Below, one piece after another: positions 17,627 to 33,332 of a stretch of DNA of 33,332 nt. Source of the DNA: a virus; the IMG/VR virus record IMGVR_UViG_3300047551_000604, positions 1-33,332 of that record. One strand, written 5' to 3'. Position 1 is the stretch's first letter, and each line of letters opens with the position of its first letter. The position numbers and the translations under genes were made by a program. The notes under the pieces were generated by a model, which had not been told where the DNA came from, searched no databases, and saw only the letters and a list, made by a program, of their open reading frames with translations.

Positions 17627-17810
17627 ACCCGAGTACTTGCTGCCGTTTGAGCAGATGCGCGTAGGAGATAGTTTTTTCCTACCAACGCTACGCCCTGCCG
17701 AAATGATCTACGTCATGGACACTCGTGCCAAAGTGGCAAAAGTTCGGGTCAAGTCATACCCTGCGACCAAAAACGGTCTCATGGGTATTCGGGTCTGGCG
17801 CACTCGTTAG
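17598..17810 (+). CDS. conserved small protein, 70 aa
   Basis: The last + strand gene. ATG 17598 lies in the end of the primase-helicase gene. The pattern FEQMRVGDSFFLP, then KVRVKSYPATKNGLMGIRVWRTR, recurs in small phage and bacterial proteins of unknown function. It is basic at its C-terminus and could bind nucleic acid. Its stop TAG (17808-17810) overlaps, head-on, the stop of the opposite-strand giant gene. Confidence 0.7.
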   Translation: MPISPRQLTEPEYLLPFEQMRVGDSFFLPTLRPAEMIYVMDTRAKVAKVRVKSYPATKNGLMGIRVWRTR

Positions 17811-20800
17811 TACGGCTCAGCCATCAAGGCATCGGTCGCCATGCGCAAATTACGCGGCAAGTAGATACCATTGACTGCCTCAAGTGCTCTGCGGCGACGC
17901 TCACGAAATGAGGCACGAAGCGACTTAGGGTTAATTATGTACGACGGGTTCGCGGCGTTGAATTTGTCTATGGCCTCGTATGCTTCGATCATTGCCTGAC
18001 CATCACCTGCTTCAGTCGCAGCGTATACATTTGTTAACAGGGCAGTTCGACGATTACGGAGTTTGTCCGAGATTTGGAATGTCGCACCGATCTGTTCTTG
18101 TGTAGCCGCGAGTTCTGCAGGGGCAAAGCCGAAAATTTGCATGGTTGAGTTCCATGCATTGACATCGTCTACGATGGGTAGACCGTTTTTGGTCAGTGCG
18201 CCTTCTGTCGCATACCGCGCTGCCTTGAGTGGGTTGCGTAACGGTGCGGGCAGAATTGACTCAAACCCACGCTGCACGTTGCCATCCATCAAGTTCTCAA
18301 TACCGCGAATTTGTGATTGGACAAGCCCATAGGTGGGACCAGCGACACGCTCAGCGATGTACAGCGGGTAGCCGACTTCAGCCAAACGTTTTGAATCATC
18401 CCGCCACAACATACCATTGAAACCAGTTCTAGAAGCAATATCAACCTGCAGCGCAGCGTTGAGCGGACCGTTTAGCCCGAGCAAACCCACGCTATCGATC
18501 ACTTCTTGTTGTAGATCGTAGGGTTCATCGTCATCACCCATCAACGCAGCCGCGAGAACTTCAGCCGCGCCGAACAACGGCAGACCTTTCATACCTGCCA
18601 TCATGTAGGTGGCTCCGTACACGCCAAGCAATTGCTTACGCGCTAACGAACGTTCTTCTGGTGTAGCGTCAATAACTTTAAGCGCACGACCAAACATGCG
18701 GGACAGAGCGATGATTTGGGTCAAGGCAAAGGTGCGGAACGTCAAGATCACACGGCCAAGATTGGTCTGATACATGCGCGAGGCTTGTTCAGGCAGCACT
18801 GTACCGTTGATGTTGTTGTTCAACCGGATGGCTTCTTCAGCCGCCTCACGGAATCCCTTGCCTTTCTCCCGTGCCAACATGAACGAGGCCAGCATCGTCA
18901 CTTCACGGTTGAACCGCTCTGAGTTTTTGAACACGTAGCCTGCGACAAAGTTGATCTTGTCCATCGTGCTTTCGTAGCCGCTGATCGCTGCACGTTGGGC
19001 TTGACGCAGTTCTTGTTCTGCTGCAATACCTATCGCACCACGCTTTTCAAGGTAATTGAACAGTGTCTTGAGTTCGCCCGAGGCAGCGTTACCAAATGTG
19101 AAGTTGCCTTGAGCATCTACACCACCTTCAAGGAATATCTTCATGGCGCGACCCATCGCAGCGATAGATTTCACTGGGCCGTACTTCGACATCAGCATTG
19201 GCCACGTTATCATGGCAAGTACTGTAGTGTTGATCAGTGCCGAGGAGATGTTACCCGCGATGCTGTAAACGTAGTTGGCTGTAGCCGCTGCATTAACCCA
19301 CGGCGCATAGCTGGGGTTATAGGCAAAGTCGAGCCGACGCCGCATATCTTCAACGCCGTCGAACACAGCCTTGGGACTCATCAACTTACGACCTCTGAGT
19401 CTCTCAGGAATATTGTTGTCCCTGACAGCAATCTCGTAGAGTTTTGCTTGCTCCAAAATCTTCTTCATCGCGTTTTCAATTGGCAACGCGAACTTCAAAT
19501 TACCCAACTGATACGCCATCTTCGGCATGGTGCGGTCGTATACCGCAAGGACATCTTGGTCAAAGCCCAGCACACCGAACTGTATCGCACCGTCAACTTC
19601 TGAAGTCTGGCGGCTTGTCAGTTCCTGCCGCAGCATGTTGGACGGCAAGTATTGGAGGAACGTGTCGTAGACACCATCGATAATCTCTTTCCTCTGTGCC
19701 TCCGGCATATCGCTCAGTTTGTCTTCCAACTTGGAGATAATTTCACCCAAGAAGCCAACCGGCGGCGGACCTTTCTGTCGGATTTCTGACGGTCGCGTAA
19801 CGCGTTGAATTGTATTTGTATTAGCAAGACCTTCTTGCGTGATTCGCTTGATTTCAGTCTCTCGCGCTGCAGCGTTACTGAATGGTTGTTTGACTACTTG
19901 GCCATCGGTCGTTTCGTAATACAACCAGTGCGCACCTTCGCCACGGACAAGCGGGGCATACATCGGCAAACGCTCGCGTTCAAAGCGTTCACGCAGGTCA
20001 CGTACAACACCCATGCCCAACTGACCACCGTAGACCTCGGCAAAAATATCAAACTTCTTATCACCCATCTTGCGATAGTCAGCGAACAAACCACTACGCT
20101 CATCGGCGCTCAGGATTGAATTCTGAAATGCCTCGGGCAAGTCATAGAACTTTTTGGCGATGTCGTAGTACTTTTGTTTCTGCGGCGACAAGGTAGCGCG
20201 GTCTTGCGTTAACAAATCACGGACAGCCTGACTACGGACGGGTACCTGAAACAAGTTGATATTGTTTACGACATCTTTAAACTTGTCATAATCTTGAGGA
20301 TTCCCCTGCACAACACGGCTGTACTTTGCATGATTGTCTGCCGCTGTCTTCATCAAGTCAGTCGTGTACGAGGCACGGTAACCAATGAAGCGATCAATTG
20401 CTCTGATGCGTGGGATGTATCGCTCAAGCAACTCGACCATGTGAGGCATGGAGTAGACGTAGTACTGTCCTCTACGCAAGTTTTCAGGAAGGTTAGACAG
20501 TGTTTCGGCTACGCCGTCACCCAAGTTTTGCGACCACTGTGGCAGTGTAGCGTTGCGGGCCAGCGCATCGGAGATGATGTTATTGTACTGTGATATCTGA
20601 TACCGAGGCCGTGCATCAGGCGTCCCCAACTTCATCGGCCCCACACGGACACGCTCTGCAGACTCAAGCAGAATGTTGTTGATGTCGTTGTTGGTGTAGT
20701 CGAGTTGGATACCCATGCTGCGAATAAACTTGCGGATCATGGCAGCGAGACGGTTGAACGCCGCCCGGATACCCGGCTCTTTAATGACCCCTGCCTCTGA

Positions 20801-23800
20801 CTTGGCAGCGAGTACTTCTTCTACAGCGCGAGCAACACGGTCTACACCTGTATATACATCCGGGTGCTTACGTAGCCAAGCGTCCGCCTGACTTTGTATT
20901 GCACTGTTCGTGGCATAAATATCGTTAAGCGCCTTGTCTAACTTTTCACCGAAAAGCCCACGCAAACCATAATGGCCGAGTGATTCGTGGAACAGCGTAG
21001 CCTTGACTTCAGATGGTGATCCAGCGTTGGCTGCAACGATATACACGTCGTTACCCAGCAACATACCTCGGACACGCTTGTACTTGTCAGAGCGGTACGC
21101 TTTCGGCAGGTCTTTATGAGTATTGACGACTTTGATATTGGGTTTATTTACCCAGCCTTGGGTTAATTCTGATACTACTTTCTGGACTTGTGAGACCGCC
21201 ATGCCTTTGGTAGTCCGGCGACCCATGCGGAAGAGAGGCAGTTTGACGAGCAAGTTACTCCGCATCTCGGGAGTAATTTCAATCACCGTGCGGACTTCGC
21301 CCGGCTGAGTCTCATCTAGGGGGCGACTTTCTCTTTCGTAGGTTTTTACTGCGTCAATAAACTCACGGATGGCATTGTTCGTTTCAATACCTTCCGGTGT
21401 ATTAGGTTTACCAACACCAATATGCCCTTCATTGATTGGGTATAGGTCTATATCACCACTACGAAGTCCTTCCATCAGTCTAGTAAAAGCAGTTCTGCGT
21501 TTTTTGCCGATGCTTTGACCATCACCCAAGACCTCGTAAGCAGAGGCGACGCTCGGATTTGCCTCAAGTTCTTTTTTGATCGCAGCAGAAATCTTGGATT
21601 CCAACTCCCACGGCGACCTAACTTTAGAGAAAGTAACCTTTCCCTTGTATTTGTTTACGATATTTTTAATGTTTTTAGGCGAAATAACATCATAGAAGAA
21701 CTCTTGTCCACGTAGATCACCCATCGTATAACTTTTTGCTTCTTGTCCCTGCGGAAACATAATCCGTTCGTAACCATTATCTGCAGCGTACTTCAGGATT
21801 CGCTTCAGAATGAGGTTTTGCCACTTGTCCGTCGAACCACTAAACGGAAAGCGTGGGGTATCAAACCTTTTTTTGCGACCTCTAGATGTTTCTAAATTAG
21901 CTTCTTTTATTTGAGTAGCCATATTTTCTGCATCTCTTTTAACCAAACCGAGTTCCTCTCTAACTCTTCGAAGTTCTCGTGGAGGAATTGCAGATGAAGC
22001 GGAAATCTGGCCTAAAGCCCCGTAAAAAGATTCTTGTTTAAAAGGCGGTAAAGTTTCAAATCTTTTCTTTAGGGCATCTTTAGTCAACAACGATTGTGTT
22101 GATGGCTCTGGGAGAGTCGGGTCATATGACGAAAAATCATAAAGTCCGATATAAGCCCCAGACGCTGATTTAAATATAGCGTACGGAGATTCACCTTTCT
22201 CAAACTCAGAGATTATTTTTTCTGCGCCGGGAAATAAATCAACAAAATCAACTCTTATTCTAGGATTTGCGTAGTCCTCCCAGTTATTAATAGCATCTTC
22301 TAAATCTACCGTGTGTAGAGTTAACTTACGTTCTTCTCGCCGTAGGTCCTCTAACTTTTCATCGACATCATTTATAATTTTTTGTTGTTCTTGGTACTGC
22401 TGAAGCGCAGCCGCTATCTTGGGTTCTTTTTCTTCCCCAACAAATCCTCTATCGCGACCGGTCTGCGCGAGTTGAGATTGCATTTCATGAACCATCAGCA
22501 CTTTGCCGTCGTTCATGTCTGACATGCGCATATGGCCTATGGCGTTACGACCATACTCATTCCAATGCTCTTCTTGAAATGTATTTTCATTAGCAAGTTT
22601 ATTAATTTCGTGTGTTATTAAATCCCTTTTATGCCGCAGTTCATCTAGCTTAGTATAGTACCCCAGAGTCCTAGTGTTGTAGTCTGCGTCATTCTCGGAG
22701 CGACTTATCTGATCTTGGATGTTTACAAATTCATTTTGCGTATTTACTAATTCAGTACGGAGTGCTTCAGCTTTTTGTCGTACTGCAGGAATAGTAGGAA
22801 TACGAATAATTAATTCGCGATAGTTATCACCAAACGGATGCCTAAACCCAGAATATTTAACGGGACCGGCTATGCCTTCTGCGCCGGGGATGGTTTTTTC
22901 TTTTATTGAATAGCGGTCTCGCTCAAAGTCATACACTGCGTTTCTGTAATCGTCAAAATCTCCCTCATAATCTCCCGGCATATCGGCAGGATCCAACTCA
23001 TCTATTGCAATAAAAGAAATAGATCGTATAAAATTGTCAGCTTCGTATTCGCTGTCAAATGTATCAATAAGGTCCCCAAAATCAGAATAAACTTCGTATT
23101 GTTTACCACCCGCGTTCTCTCCCAACAGCGTTTCTTCAAGGGTTACACCATTGTTGGCGAGATAGTTCAGTGCGTCTTCTTTGCTGACATTACCTTCCTG
23201 TGCCTCAAGCCAGTCCTTGAAGCCGGTGTATTCAAGTTCTTCGTCTTTGACGTTCTTGTTGCGCAACGTGGCAAGCCACTGCTGCGGCGTAGCCGACTTG
23301 AGAGGCAGTCGTTCAGCCTGACGGGCAAGTTCGGAGTAGTACCAAGACTCCGGGTCTTCATCGATTTGGAACCGGGCGGGTTCTACGTTGAGAGCTTTTT
23401 GTCTCGCAGTAGTTGGTATCAGTATTTCTTCTTCCCCAAAATTTTTTTCGCCAATAGCATTGCTGTATGAAAGTACGTCTGATACCGGGACTTTTATTTC
23501 TTCAATCTGTCCACTACGTATACCTTGTTGCTCAGCAAAAAATTTAGCCGTATCTTTATCTAAGCTGTAACTCAGTACAGGAGTTTTATCTTCAGTACCT
23601 TTCAGCCCACGATAAAGAATGACCTCGTCGCCAAATCGTTTTTGCAACGCGTATTGTGAGACTTGTTTTATATAATTTTTGGCCCTTTCTATGTCATCCA
23701 TAGAAGGGACTTCATCTAAATCTAAATTTGTTGTAGTCGCATCTTGCGGGTCTGGCTCATAAAGCCCCCGTGCAAAATCAGATGCCCCTCTTCTGTTTAC

Positions 23801-24883
23801 AATCAGTTGCGAAATCGGATCGGGTTCTAGTGGAGGTTGTACACCTTCCTCTCCCTCATCAACCCGTCGAGCAGGGCCACGAGGAACGCCCATTCCTGCG
23901 GTTCTAAATCCCTCAACATCTGGTCCTGCGGCTCCAACTCGTGATACAGGCAGTTCAACGCCTCTTGTATCTGCTCCCGTGATAACTTGTTCAGTACCAA
24001 CTCTTGTACGTTCATCTTCGCCCTCCGGTGGGGCCACTGCACCACGAACACGGCGTCCCACGGCCAAATCGGTGAGTCCTTGTATAAAGGCTCCGATGCC
24101 GAACCCATAGGCACCTTCTTCTGCCGCCCCTTCAAAGACATCTTGTTCGGGGTTGTAGAGTCCTTTTTCAATGAGGTTTTGGGCGATGTTTGCCGAGGCT
24201 TCTTGTGCAAACTCTTCTCCACCAGCCGCCGCAGCGCGTTTGATGTACTCTAAAACTAATCCTTTATCTTGATCCGGCAAACGGTTAAGGATTCGGTCTG
24301 CGAATCGGAATACAGGCACAACTTCAGTCGCTCCGACCAAAGCACCGAGAGCCGTGGCTGCGCCACGCTCTTCCATGCCGCCTTCCTGTTCTGCCCGGAC
24401 CCGCGCCTCGCCTGCACCGGCACCTACGCCAAGCCCTGCAGCGCCCAACCGGCCTGCTACACCAAGAGGGCCAAGTGCAAAAAAAGGTGCGGTGGACCCG
24501 AGCGCCTCGCCTGCTTTACGTCCTATAGACTCTTCATAGCCAGCCGCAGCTTCAAACGGCTCACGAAGTGATCCTGCGATGTCTTCAATTTGCCCACGCA
24601 CAGCCCGTTCGGCTTGGTCAGGCAGAAGCGCAGCCGCACCTGTGGCGGCAGACTGAAGCAAACCCACCGCGCCAGACGGGATACCCTTGAGAACTTCTAA
24701 AACTTCACCCGAGATAGTGGTAGCTGGGGTCGTCCTTTTTTGTTCGACTGGCGTAGACAGTTGTTCATCAGGCGGAGGAAACATCCCCGCGATGTATTGC
24801 TCAACGTCTTCAGGGGCTAACCCCTCATCAACCTCAAAACGGCCAATTCGGCCATCCGGTAGACGGACTCGTGCAATAGGCAT
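17807..24883 (-). CDS. giant polyvalent virion protein with ART-, LPD- and zincin-like regions
   Basis: 2358 residues, about a fifth of the window. Regions in order: a short charged N-terminus, then Ala/Gly-rich hydrophobic segments (68-88, 129-160, 174-194, 244-265) that could insert in a membrane; an ADP-ribosyltransferase-like signature (LYRG with R425, S438-Y-S440, and E484-E-E486 in GEEEIL); a polyvalent-type PQQWLATL segment (about 525-590); an LPD-type region with VHEMQSQLAQTGR (about 800) and DKWQNLILKRILKYAADNGY (about 1020-1040); a zincin-like HESLGH (1299-1304); and a long C-terminal region with hydrophobic helices and an RFNREVTMLASFML segment, resembling podovirus internal virion proteins. 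The start ATG follows AGGGA. Probably packaged and ejected with the DNA; the catalytic activities are inferred from motifs only. Confidence 0.8.
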   Translation of the reverse strand: MPIARVRLPDGRIGRFEVDEGLAPEDVEQYIAGMFPPPDEQLSTPVEQKRTTPATTISGEVLEVLKGIPSGAVGLLQSAATGAAALLPDQAERAVRGQIEDIAGSLREPFEAAAGYEESIGRKAGEALGSTAPFFALGPLGVAGRLGAAGLGVGAGAGEARVRAEQEGGMEERGAATALGALVGATEVVPVFRFADRILNRLPDQDKGLVLEYIKRAAAAGGEEFAQEASANIAQNLIEKGLYNPEQDVFEGAAEEGAYGFGIGAFIQGLTDLAVGRRVRGAVAPPEGEDERTRVGTEQVITGADTRGVELPVSRVGAAGPDVEGFRTAGMGVPRGPARRVDEGEEGVQPPLEPDPISQLIVNRRGASDFARGLYEPDPQDATTTNLDLDEVPSMDDIERAKNYIKQVSQYALQKRFGDEVILYRGLKGTEDKTPVLSYSLDKDTAKFFAEQQGIRSGQIEEIKVPVSDVLSYSNAIGEKNFGEEEILIPTTARQKALNVEPARFQIDEDPESWYYSELARQAERLPLKSATPQQWLATLRNKNVKDEELEYTGFKDWLEAQEGNVSKEDALNYLANNGVTLEETLLGENAGGKQYEVYSDFGDLIDTFDSEYEADNFIRSISFIAIDELDPADMPGDYEGDFDDYRNAVYDFERDRYSIKEKTIPGAEGIAGPVKYSGFRHPFGDNYRELIIRIPTIPAVRQKAEALRTELVNTQNEFVNIQDQISRSENDADYNTRTLGYYTKLDELRHKRDLITHEINKLANENTFQEEHWNEYGRNAIGHMRMSDMNDGKVLMVHEMQSQLAQTGRDRGFVGEEKEPKIAAALQQYQEQQKIINDVDEKLEDLRREERKLTLHTVDLEDAINNWEDYANPRIRVDFVDLFPGAEKIISEFEKGESPYAIFKSASGAYIGLYDFSSYDPTLPEPSTQSLLTKDALKKRFETLPPFKQESFYGALGQISASSAIPPRELRRVREELGLVKRDAENMATQIKEANLETSRGRKKRFDTPRFPFSGSTDKWQNLILKRILKYAADNGYERIMFPQGQEAKSYTMGDLRGQEFFYDVISPKNIKNIVNKYKGKVTFSKVRSPWELESKISAAIKKELEANPSVASAYEVLGDGQSIGKKRRTAFTRLMEGLRSGDIDLYPINEGHIGVGKPNTPEGIETNNAIREFIDAVKTYERESRPLDETQPGEVRTVIEITPEMRSNLLVKLPLFRMGRRTTKGMAVSQVQKVVSELTQGWVNKPNIKVVNTHKDLPKAYRSDKYKRVRGMLLGNDVYIVAANAGSPSEVKATLFHESLGHYGLRGLFGEKLDKALNDIYATNSAIQSQADAWLRKHPDVYTGVDRVARAVEEVLAAKSEAGVIKEPGIRAAFNRLAAMIRKFIRSMGIQLDYTNNDINNILLESAERVRVGPMKLGTPDARPRYQISQYNNIISDALARNATLPQWSQNLGDGVAETLSNLPENLRRGQYYVYSMPHMVELLERYIPRIRAIDRFIGYRASYTTDLMKTAADNHAKYSRVVQGNPQDYDKFKDVVNNINLFQVPVRSQAVRDLLTQDRATLSPQKQKYYDIAKKFYDLPEAFQNSILSADERSGLFADYRKMGDKKFDIFAEVYGGQLGMGVVRDLRERFERERLPMYAPLVRGEGAHWLYYETTDGQVVKQPFSNAAARETEIKRITQEGLANTNTIQRVTRPSEIRQKGPPPVGFLGEIISKLEDKLSDMPEAQRKEIIDGVYDTFLQYLPSNMLRQELTSRQTSEVDGAIQFGVLGFDQDVLAVYDRTMPKMAYQLGNLKFALPIENAMKKILEQAKLYEIAVRDNNIPERLRGRKLMSPKAVFDGVEDMRRRLDFAYNPSYAPWVNAAATANYVYSIAGNISSALINTTVLAMITWPMLMSKYGPVKSIAAMGRAMKIFLEGGVDAQGNFTFGNAASGELKTLFNYLEKRGAIGIAAEQELRQAQRAAISGYESTMDKINFVAGYVFKNSERFNREVTMLASFMLAREKGKGFREAAEEAIRLNNNINGTVLPEQASRMYQTNLGRVILTFRTFALTQIIALSRMFGRALKVIDATPEERSLARKQLLGVYGATYMMAGMKGLPLFGAAEVLAAALMGDDDEPYDLQQEVIDSVGLLGLNGPLNAALQVDIASRTGFNGMLWRDDSKRLAEVGYPLYIAERVAGPTYGLVQSQIRGIENLMDGNVQRGFESILPAPLRNPLKAARYATEGALTKNGLPIVDDVNAWNSTMQIFGFAPAELAATQEQIGATFQISDKLRNRRTALLTNVYAATEAGDGQAMIEAYEAIDKFNAANPSYIINPKSLRASFRERRRRALEAVNGIYLPRNLRMATDALMAEPY

Positions 24884-31515: not shown

Positions 31516-32112
31516 TTAGTTGGCTTCGTAGTTCGACACCCAAACCACGGACAGAATAATGGACGGAATCGCTGGAATATTGCCTGATGCAGTCACGTAA
31601 GGAATGATCACATCGGTGTCAGACGACTGCCAAGCCAACTCAAAATAGTCGTTTGCCTGCATCACAAGCACGAAGTTCCACGCCGCCACGATCTCGTTGT
31701 TAGGGCCGTCGATTACGATCTTGGTAGCCGAATCGGGAACATTAACTCCATTAATCCGGGGCCAGATATACACGGCGCTTGCGCTACCGCCCGATTTATC
31801 CAACTGAGCGGAGAACTGAAAGTTATAAATACCCGTCTGGCTTACGTAGATTTTGGAAGTCGGTACCCCACGAGTAACGCCTTGCTCGGATACAGACGAG
31901 TTATATGTGAAAAGATTAACTGTGTCCGCCACCGGATTTGTTTGAGTAGTCGTATCAAAATACGACCCGTGCGCGGTGGGCGAGTTAATCCTATTCGTGA
32001 CCTGCGTAAAGTACAGCCGCAGGACGTTATTCAACTGGTCCTGAAACCGCATCTCATACTGGGACGGAGCCAGCGGCAGGTTAGGGGCGACAACTCCACG
32101 AGCGACGGTCAT
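31516..32112 (-). CDS. jelly-roll-like virion structural protein, 198 aa
   Basis: ATG 32112 overlaps the stop of the gp10-like gene (ATGA). The N-terminal 40 residues (PLAPSQYEMRFQDQLNNVLR) recur in phage tail-associated proteins. The rest is beta-rich, with SKIYVSQTGIYNFQFSAQLD, WPRINGVNVPDS and ANDYFELAWQSS, the pattern of C1q/TNF-like jelly-roll heads found on phage fibres and decoration proteins. It probably lies on the tail or capsid surface; receptor binding is possible but unproven. Confidence 0.65.
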   Translation of the reverse strand: MTVARGVVAPNLPLAPSQYEMRFQDQLNNVLRLYFTQVTNRINSPTAHGSYFDTTTQTNPVADTVNLFTYNSSVSEQGVTRGVPTSKIYVSQTGIYNFQFSAQLDKSGGSASAVYIWPRINGVNVPDSATKIVIDGPNNEIVAAWNFVLVMQANDYFELAWQSSDTDVIIPYVTASGNIPAIPSIILSVVWVSNYEAN

Positions 32113-33332
32113 CGGCGTCCATCCGGGCGAACATCAATTCGCATCATGCCCATCTGCCACGCCACACCAAGATCAGTCGAGTGGACTCGGAACGACATCT
32201 GACGGCCCCGGATGCGGGTGTAGACCTGACCCGTGTACTGCTGGATCGGTATCGTCGAAGTGCGCGTGACCGTGGGGCTGTCGGCAGAGGTGTAGTTAGT
32301 GCCAGAATTTTGACGCGGTTTGACCGTGAGCGTGACCGTGGGGCTGGTTGCTGAAGAGCCAGTAAAGTTTAAATCCGGCAGGATGCGCCAGACGTAGCCA
32401 AAACTCTGCCCGTCCTGAATGTCAAAGTCTGACGATTCAATAAAAGACTCAATCGGCAACGCGGGACTTACTGACGCATCGTCGTTACCTACCTCATGGA
32501 ACAGCGCCTGATTCGGCACCGTGTAGGGAGCGGCTGTGTACAGATCATGCGAGGCGGCAGTTGTACTGTTGGCACCCCGTATACACCCAGTGAGAGTATT
32601 GCCACTTAACCCTGTATAAGTAATCTGCTCCGAGTCAATCTGCACCGTGCCTTCAACCGGGTATGCCGACGCATCAATCAAGGCAATCGTCGTAACAGCA
32701 GAATTGATCGAAGTAGCAAGGTACGAGTTCTGTACTGAGAACGCCGCAACAGGCAAATCTCTCTGGGTGTGTTCCGCCCATGCAGTTCGGGTAAGAGTTC
32801 CGTAGTACCAGACTCGCTCAAGATAGTTATAGATCACGTACCGATCATTAGTCTGGCTATTGGCGGAAGGATAAAACCACCAGACCTCGTTGAAGCCTTG
32901 GTTAGAACCCGCACAGACCTGATCAATCTGATCGTAGTTAATATCGCTGTACACAAACTGACGCAGCGTACAAGGCAAGGTCTCGACACGACCTGTGTAC
33001 AGGAAGAACTTATCCCGCCCCATCCAGAACGTAATGTTATTTACCGTAATCGCTGCGCTTTGCGAAGCAATGGATATATCTTGGTCAATGAGGTTAAAAG
33101 TCCACACAAACGGAGGACCGACGTACTGCATGGAGAACACAGCCGTATCCGTCCAGATCAGGATTTCCTGACGGGTATTCGCAGCAGCGACGATATATGA
33201 CCCGTGCGAGAGAGTCTGTTCACCCGATTGGTTTGTTACCTGCGGCACCCATTCATACGCATTGCCCTGATCTGACCAGCGCACAAGCAGCGGGTTGAAT
33301 GTGGTTACGAAGTTAGTCGGATCATATGGGCA
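32109..33332 (-). CDS. P22 gp10-like tail protein, 3' part (runs off window)
   Basis: The frame stays open to the right edge; the GTG at 33284 is internal, and the codons up to 33332 read CPYDPTNFVTTFNPLLV in frame, so the gene is cut by the window. About 407 residues are visible. Features such as ILIWTDTAVFSMQYVGPPF, ITFWMGRDKFFLYTGRVETL and DRYVIYNYLERVWYYGTL are typical of the P22 gp10 tail-hub / stabilisation family (beta-propeller). An inserted small module (YLATSINSAVTTIALIDAS through NTLTGCIRGANSTTAASHD) lies in the middle. It should close the DNA channel and join the tail needle or knob to the portal. Confidence 0.7.
   Translation of the reverse strand, partial: CPYDPTNFVTTFNPLLVRWSDQGNAYEWVPQVTNQSGEQTLSHGSYIVAAANTRQEILIWTDTAVFSMQYVGPPFVWTFNLIDQDISIASQSAAITVNNITFWMGRDKFFLYTGRVETLPCTLRQFVYSDINYDQIDQVCAGSNQGFNEVWWFYPSANSQTNDRYVIYNYLERVWYYGTLTRTAWAEHTQRDLPVAAFSVQNSYLATSINSAVTTIALIDASAYPVEGTVQIDSEQITYTGLSGNTLTGCIRGANSTTAASHDLYTAAPYTVPNQALFHEVGNDDASVSPALPIESFIESSDFDIQDGQSFGYVWRILPDLNFTGSSATSPTVTLTVKPRQNSGTNYTSADSPTVTRTSTIPIQQYTGQVYTRIRGRQMSFRVHSTDLGVAWQMGMMRIDVRPDGRR

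What the first reader, a model, noticed from the sequence alone, without database searches (positions are those of the whole stretch)
23423..23620. ADP-ribosyltransferase-like signature inside a 2358-aa virion protein
Residues about 421-490 read ILYRGLK (R425), then SYSLDKDTAKFFA (S438, S440), then GEEEILIP (E484, E486). Order and spacing match the R-S-E class of ADP-ribosyltransferases, whose catalytic Glu is in an ExE motif. T4 carries ART proteins (Alt) in its head and injects them. A giant ejected polyvalent protein with an ART could modify host proteins at the moment of entry. The motif is seen; the activity and delivery are inference.
Basis: partly seen in the sequence, partly recalled or inferred. 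Interest (0 to 1): 0.8.

Follow-up and report, generated by a model that had tools for sequence, protein, structure and literature searches.

The report
ADP-ribosyltransferase module in phage polyvalent protein
A giant phage protein of the kind thought to be injected into bacteria at infection carries a small swappable module that looks like an enzyme that tags other molecules with ADP-ribose, and the module belongs to a phage enzyme family that nobody had named.

Summary
The bare R...SxS...ExE motif is worthless alone: 3 hits in the protein, 3.6 expected in shuffles. But residues 399-492 belong to an unannotated phage family (PHROG 4776/25265). A profile built without the window scores the protein at 34 bits; the best of 1000 shuffles scores 7.9. 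Across 30 divergent members the only seven invariant columns are R425, G426, S438, A446, F449, E484 and E486. The same seven, with the same S+8, S+11 and ExE offsets, are invariant in the T4 ModA/ModB set. AlphaFold2 models of the window domain (pLDDT 78) and a mycobacteriophage homologue (94.5) match PDB chains of the ART superfamily nearly throughout the top rows. R is on strand 1, S on strand 2, ExE at strand 5. The domain is a 148-residue in-frame cassette that the sister phage lacks, in a slot that carries other domains in related polyvalent proteins. A stand-alone member, LeBron gp117, was published as mildly toxic with no known function. The 2017 survey described polyvalent-protein ARTs as H-Y-D, with T4 Alt/VIP2 (R-S-E) ARTs absent. 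Activity, target and injection remain inferred.

The parts
17807..24883 (-). 2358-aa polyvalent-type protein that carries the ART module
   Evidence: ORF, translation; C-terminal PLxRFG domain NF032893 E 3.5e-104, DarB-like phrog_10089 E 3.4e-60
23384..23827 (-). 148-residue in-frame cassette (residues 353-500), absent from the sister phage
   Evidence: Pairwise alignment with the L002 homologue: single 148-aa gap, flanks 67% and 92% identical; GC 0.40 (4th percentile) and GC3 0.29 (2nd percentile) within the gene; TAGAACCCG repeated at both junctions
23408..23689 (-). ART-like domain core (residues 399-492)
   Evidence: hmmsearch with family profile built without the window, 34.4 bits; phrog_4776 E 1.9e-4 and phrog_25265 E 3.3e-4; AF2 model and fold search
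23609..23611 (-). R425, predicted NAD-binding Arg on strand 1
   Evidence: Invariant in 30/30; model strand 69-76; motif equivalent of ModB R73, whose mutation inactivates ModB (PMC10468400)
23564..23572 (-). S438-Y439-S440, motif II (S-x-S/T) on strand 2
   Evidence: S438 invariant in 30/30; model strand 85-89
23426..23434 (-). E484-E485-E486, ExE motif at strand 5; E486 predicted catalytic
   Evidence: E484 and E486 invariant in 30/30; model strand 134-139 begins at residue 485
23114..23383 (-). Downstream domain (residues about 501-590) shared with other polyvalent proteins; fixed edge of the variable slot
   Evidence: 92% identical in L002; 35% identical in Microcystis phage Mel-JY33; 11 further viral contigs besides the sister phage
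20972..20989 (-). HESLGH (residues 1299-1304), HEXXXH-type metallopeptidase motif
   Evidence: Motif position; the HEXXXH form is described for polyvalent-protein metallopeptidases in PMC5512222
17849..19963 (-). C-terminal PLxRFG / DarB-like C-terminal domain (residues 1641-2345)
   Evidence: NF032893 349.7 bits; phrog_10089
32109..33284 (-). Virion structural protein at the start of the same minus-strand run of genes (gene context)
   Evidence: phrog_3287 head and packaging E 4.8e-47

Best explanation
Residues about 399-492 form a compact ADP-ribosyltransferase domain of the R-S-E type. R425 on strand 1 and S438 on strand 2 would hold NAD+, and E486 of the E484-x-E486 motif at strand 5 would catalyse transfer. 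By analogy with other ExE enzymes it most likely mono-ADP-ribosylates arginines of host proteins. It sits as an interchangeable cargo module in a polyvalent protein made from the late, structural gene block. The protein is most likely packaged, ejected with the DNA, possibly cut by its own metallopeptidase domain, and the ART then modifies host targets at the start of infection. Shown by computation: homology to a phage family, invariance of the catalytic residues, ART-like predicted fold, modular insertion. Inferred: activity, arginine specificity, packaging, ejection, processing, targets.
For: Family membership: 34.4 bits with a profile built without the window, best shuffle 7.9; all 30 members match phrog_4776. 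Invariance: only R, G, S, A, F, E and E are invariant in 30 sequences. T4 ModA/ModB: the same seven residues are invariant in the six-sequence Mod set with the same S+8 A, S+11 F and ExE offsets; ModB R73 is essential (PMC10468400). Fold: window-domain model pLDDT 78, pTM 0.71; nearly all of the top 50 VIA rows are ART-superfamily chains (Tpt1/KptA Z 7.7, Arr-2 6.5, Rhs toxin TreX 6.3, pertussis S1 5.2, cholera A 5.1, tankyrase 5.1, ParT 4.9, RES 4.9). Aligned starts (model 68 to cholera residue 1, model 67 to pertussis residue 2) put R425 opposite R7 and R9 if no gap intervenes. Homologue model pLDDT 94.5, pTM 0.86, with ART neighbours again. Module: 148-aa indel against the sister phage with low GC. 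Context: PLxRFG/DarB-like C-terminus, virion structural gene in the same run, HEXXXH motif. Phenotype: LeBron gp117, a 245-aa member, slows M. smegmatis growth when overexpressed (PMC13148394).
Against: All VIA Z-scores are below 8 and no PDB Foldseek hit reaches E 0.001. No sequence-level hit to any named ART family in Pfam, NCBIfam or PDB. Profile-profile comparison with ModA/B aligns only 17 columns (probability 27%). The window copy is a very divergent member (about 18-24% identity) and differs at several near-invariant positions: W to Y and T to S in motif II, Arg after FA to Gln, Arg before ExE replaced, a short insertion before ExE. No proof of packaging or ejection. The LeBron phenotype is mild and its authors caution about overexpression artefacts.
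Confidence: 0.66

Rival explanations
1. The ART domain is active but works late, inside the producing cell (on phage or host proteins during assembly, or against immunity), and is not delivered at entry.
For: Stand-alone members in mycobacteriophages lie among small non-structural genes next to tRNA genes and in Catdawg near a DNA polymerase clamp gene, so the family is not tied to virions. PMC9503650 notes that ARTs near packaging genes could instead act on immunity aimed at the packaging apparatus.
Against: In the window the domain is part of a polyvalent protein with a DarB-like/PLxRFG C-terminus and an HEXXXH motif, the class proposed to be packaged and injected.
Confidence: 0.2
2. It is an ART-fold NADase or a modifier of RNA, DNA or small molecules, not an arginine-specific protein ADP-ribosyltransferase.
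For: Highest Z-scores are to RNA-repair Tpt1/KptA and to Arr-2, which acts on rifampicin; ART folds include NADases (PMC13285283 title) and RNA-targeting toxins (PMC12340436 abstract).
Against: The invariant residues are R-S-ExE, the pattern of ModA/ModB, not the H-H-h pattern of the KptA clade.
Confidence: 0.2
3. A decayed or non-catalytic ART-like domain kept as a binding or structural module.
For: The window copy departs from the family at near-invariant flanking positions and has an insertion before ExE; only one copy is known in this context, so selection cannot be measured.
Against: All seven family-invariant residues are retained despite only about 18-24% identity, and the reading frame is open.
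Confidence: 0.12
4. The motif is a coincidence in an unrelated fold.
For: Loose motif frequency equals shuffles.
Against: Family profile score, invariance pattern and predicted fold.
Confidence: 0.03

Closest known systems
phrog_4776 / phrog_25265 stand-alone phage proteins (Mycobacterium phage LeBron gp117, Catdawg gp78, Gordonia phage Octobien14 gp9, Lysinibacillus phage LysYB1 M3_0181)
   Same: Homologous ART-like domain, same seven invariant residues
   Different: They are mostly 200-280 aa proteins with a helical N-terminal half, annotated hypothetical; the window has the C-terminal domain fused into a 2358-aa protein
T4 ModA/ModB (R-S-E clade, Mod family)
   Same: R-G, S-x-S/T, A at S+8, F at S+11, ExE all invariant in both sets
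   Different: No full-length profile match; R to S spacing 13 against 24; Mod proteins are stand-alone
T4 Alt (head-packaged, injected R-S-E ART)
   Same: Proposed mode: ART carried in the virion, acting at entry
   Different: Not compared by sequence here; no sequence-level hit to any ART model; carrier protein is of a different type
H-Y-D ARTs of polyvalent proteins (Pfam ART-PolyVal PF18760; PMC5512222)
   Same: ART module inside a polyvalent protein
   Different: Active site R-S-E, not H-Y-D; no PF18760 match in the window genome

Membership tests
ART superfamily (fold) | ART-like alpha/beta fold | tested here: met
   AF2 models; nearly all top-50 VIA rows are ARTs; modest Z (7.7 and 6.6 at best)
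R-S-E clade of ARTs | Arg on strand 1, Ser on strand 2, Glu on strand 5 | tested here: met
   R425, S438, E484/E486 in 30/30 sequences and on strands 1, 2 and 5 of the model; strand numbering from PMC5512222
R-S-E clade of ARTs | The three residues line one NAD pocket | not testable with these tools
   Model coordinates are not exposed; only aligned ranges are given
T4 Mod family | Full-length profile similarity to ModA/ModB | tested here: inconclusive
   hhalign aligns 17 columns, E 6.6e-4, probability 27%
T4 Alt/VIP2 family | Sequence or profile match to Alt | not tested
   Alt was not fetched; Pfam and NCBIfam scans gave no ART model
ART-PolyVal PF18760 (H-Y-D) | Match to the Pfam model and H-Y-D residues | tested here: not met
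   No match in G000 at E 1; R and S occupy the strand 1 and strand 2 positions
phrog_4776/25265 phage family | Profile match over the C-terminal domain with R, S, ExE | tested here: met
   E 1.9e-4 and 3.3e-4; 34.4 bits with own profile
Polyvalent protein | Very large multidomain phage protein with metallopeptidase motif and a C-terminal domain shared with DarB-like phage proteins | tested here: met
   2358 aa; HEXXXH motif; PLxRFG and DarB-like C-terminus. The metallopeptidase is by motif only
Polyvalent protein | Packaged in the virion and ejected | not testable with these tools
   Only gene context and domain homology
Enzymatically active ART | NAD-dependent transfer | not testable with these tools
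   No assay possible

The most novel reading that the evidence does not exclude
A previously unnamed family of R-S-E ADP-ribosyltransferases, common in phages as small 'hypothetical' proteins, has been captured as exchangeable cargo in a polyvalent protein, so phages can swap chemically different ARTs and other effectors in one delivery slot and modify the host at the moment of entry.
Probability: 0.45. Interest if true: 0.68.

Novelty: new variant of a known kind. Interest (0 to 1): 0.52.

Why it matters
[quoted passage not shown] This is a candidate R-S-E exception, with a sister phage lacking exactly that module. It also gives a testable biochemical role to a family present in over 100 phage records, mostly of laboratory hosts, as 'hypothetical protein', including LeBron gp117, reported in 2026 as growth-inhibiting with no known function (PMC13148394).

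Tried and rejected
Motif alone as evidence: rejected, equals shuffles. Pfam, NCBIfam, PADLOC and PDB sequence searches with the domain, the whole protein or family alignments gave no ART. Close relatives of the cassette in viral contigs: none by pattern; only the sister phage by flank. One alignment of eight members was too diverse to search with. Genome collection: one Clostridia MAG contig only. Search of 13 other loci (12 distinct proteins or fewer, as L068/L069 look alike) with the shared downstream domain for the same ART family: none. PF18760 in Mel-JY33 and Nsp-JY18, where an LFHWS...SFFG stretch suggested an H-Y type ART in the same slot: no match, so it stays a guess by eye. The A4 pre-ejectosome paper was not held. 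No fold-search row for T4 Alt/ModB was seen, which is not evidence against relation.

Full report
What was claimed. The residues and coordinates are correct.

Is it more than chance? The motif alone is not: loose R-S.S-E.E matches occur 3 times in the protein and 3.6 times on average in shuffled copies. The evidence had to come from relatives. PHROGs gave two weak hits to families of unknown function over the right residues, and tblastn gave marginal hits to Gordonia phage Octobien14 gp9 and Lysinibacillus phage LysYB1. From these, searches reached over 100 mycobacteriophage records, 45 viral contigs and one Clostridia MAG contig. A profile built from 29 of them without the window finds P0001 residues 399-492 at 34.4 bits; the best of 1000 shuffled copies scores 7.9. 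In the 30-sequence alignment only seven columns are invariant: R425, G426, S438, A446, F449, E484 and E486. Four of the seven are the residues an R-S-E ART needs. The search patterns centred on the SWT and A..FA stretches, so invariance of S, A and F is partly by construction; R, G and the two E are not.

Independent comparison. T4 ModA/ModB and four relatives were aligned. All seven residues are invariant there too, with A at S+8, F at S+11 and E-x-E. ModB R73 is required for activity (PMC10468400). Profile-profile comparison aligns only the motif II stretch (17 columns, probability 27%), so this is a shared superfamily pattern, not membership of the Mod family.

Fold. AlphaFold2 on window residues 352-505 with the family alignment gives pLDDT 78 and pTM 0.71, with strands 69-76 (R425), 85-89 (S438, S440), 108-115, 121-124 and 134-139 (next to E484/E486). 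PMC5512222 places the active residues of ARTs on strands 1, 2 and 5, which is what is seen. Foldseek finds Rhs toxins of the ART fold first (TreX, E 0.016, probability 0.99). In the VIA second look nearly all of the top 50 entries are ARTs of several clades, Z 4.8-7.7. Z below 8 is not strong in itself; the uniformity of the list is the argument. The aligned starts put R425 opposite Arg7 of cholera toxin and Arg9 of pertussis S1, assuming no gap in the first residues. A mycobacteriophage homologue models at pLDDT 94.5 and pTM 0.86 and again matches mostly ARTs. In BFVD the closest model is the Octobien14 homologue (E 5.7e-6). Pocket geometry could not be measured.

The module. The closest phage found (L002) has a 2201-aa homologue that is 67-92% identical on either side and lacks residues 353-500 exactly. 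The cassette has lower GC (0.40 against 0.49 for the gene; GC3 0.29, 2nd percentile) and TAGAACCCG at both junctions. Insertion in the window lineage or loss in the sister cannot be told apart, though the composition favours a foreign origin. The domain immediately downstream (residues 501-590) occurs in other polyvalent proteins, and what lies upstream differs: a possible H-Y type ART stretch in two cyanobacterial phages, a ParB-like stretch (such as GRHRAIAAKELGIKEVPV) in three contigs, a metallopeptidase-like HELGH in another, nothing in L002 (these upstream readings are by eye). None of the 13 other loci examined carries the window's ART family in the stretch held.

The carrier. The protein ends in a PLxRFG domain (NF032893) that is also the C-terminus of DarB-like phage proteins (phrog_10089). 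It has HESLGH at 1299, the HEXXXH form described for polyvalent-protein metallopeptidases (PMC5512222). It is the last gene of a minus-strand run that starts with a virion structural protein (phrog_3287). Iyer et al. propose that such proteins are packaged, injected and self-processed, and P1 Dar proteins are ejected with the DNA (PMC12810830). For the window itself this is inference.

What is known and what is new. [quoted passage not shown] A 2022 survey lists Alt/VIP2 and Mod as the common viral R-S-E families. The phage family found here has no named model in Pfam or NCBIfam and is 'unknown function' in PHROGs. One member, LeBron gp117 (245 aa, matching L006), is reported as mildly cytotoxic with no known function (PMC13148394); the authors warn that mild scores may be artefacts. 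I therefore file it as a new variant of a known kind.

Confidence by step: ART fold with R-S-E residues about 0.88; catalytically active about 0.75; arginine-directed protein modification, given activity, about 0.65; delivered in the virion about 0.6. The confidence given for the best explanation (0.66) is for an active R-S-E ART carried as a module of a polyvalent protein; the whole chain, arginine targets and delivery included, is less likely than that.

Noticed in passing
window:26494-29193 (-): 899-aa protein made largely of Gln/Ala-rich repeats of the type LANQQAGMQVGQQNLQA; weak PHROG hit to a DNA ejection protein over residues 6-72. The sister phage has a shorter version with fewer repeats (L002:3314-5353).
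   Followed up: no
L006:1468-2205 (LeBron gp117) and homologues in over 100 phage records: Stand-alone members of the same ART-like family annotated hypothetical, several beside tRNA genes; LeBron gp117 is a published mild growth inhibitor of unknown function.
   Followed up: yes
L005/L058 (Microcystis phage Mel-JY33) and L059 (Nostoc phage Nsp-JY18): In the same slot upstream of the shared domain these 4-kaa proteins, annotated 'lysin', have an ELFHWS...SFFGV stretch that looks by eye like an H-Y type ART; no Pfam match.
   Followed up: partly
PDB 9k3a_B (cyanophage A4 pre-ejectosome), residues 1269-1604: A solved pre-ejectosome chain appears among the ART matches of the homologue model L039:3539-4255 (Z 5.0, 86 residues), hinting at an ART-like domain in an ejectosome.
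   Followed up: no
L072, L073, L076 upstream of the shared domain: ParB-like stretch (GRHRAIAAKELGIKEVPV or similar) in the slot that holds the ART in the window.
   Followed up: no
L056:2162-2770 (Clostridia MAG contig): The only member found in the bacterial genome collection, in a protein of at least 441 aa cut by the contig end.
   Followed up: no
window:3588-5456 (+): 622-aa protein that looks by eye like a tetratricopeptide N-terminus joined to glycosyltransferase-like parts; only a PHROG hit of unknown function.
   Followed up: no
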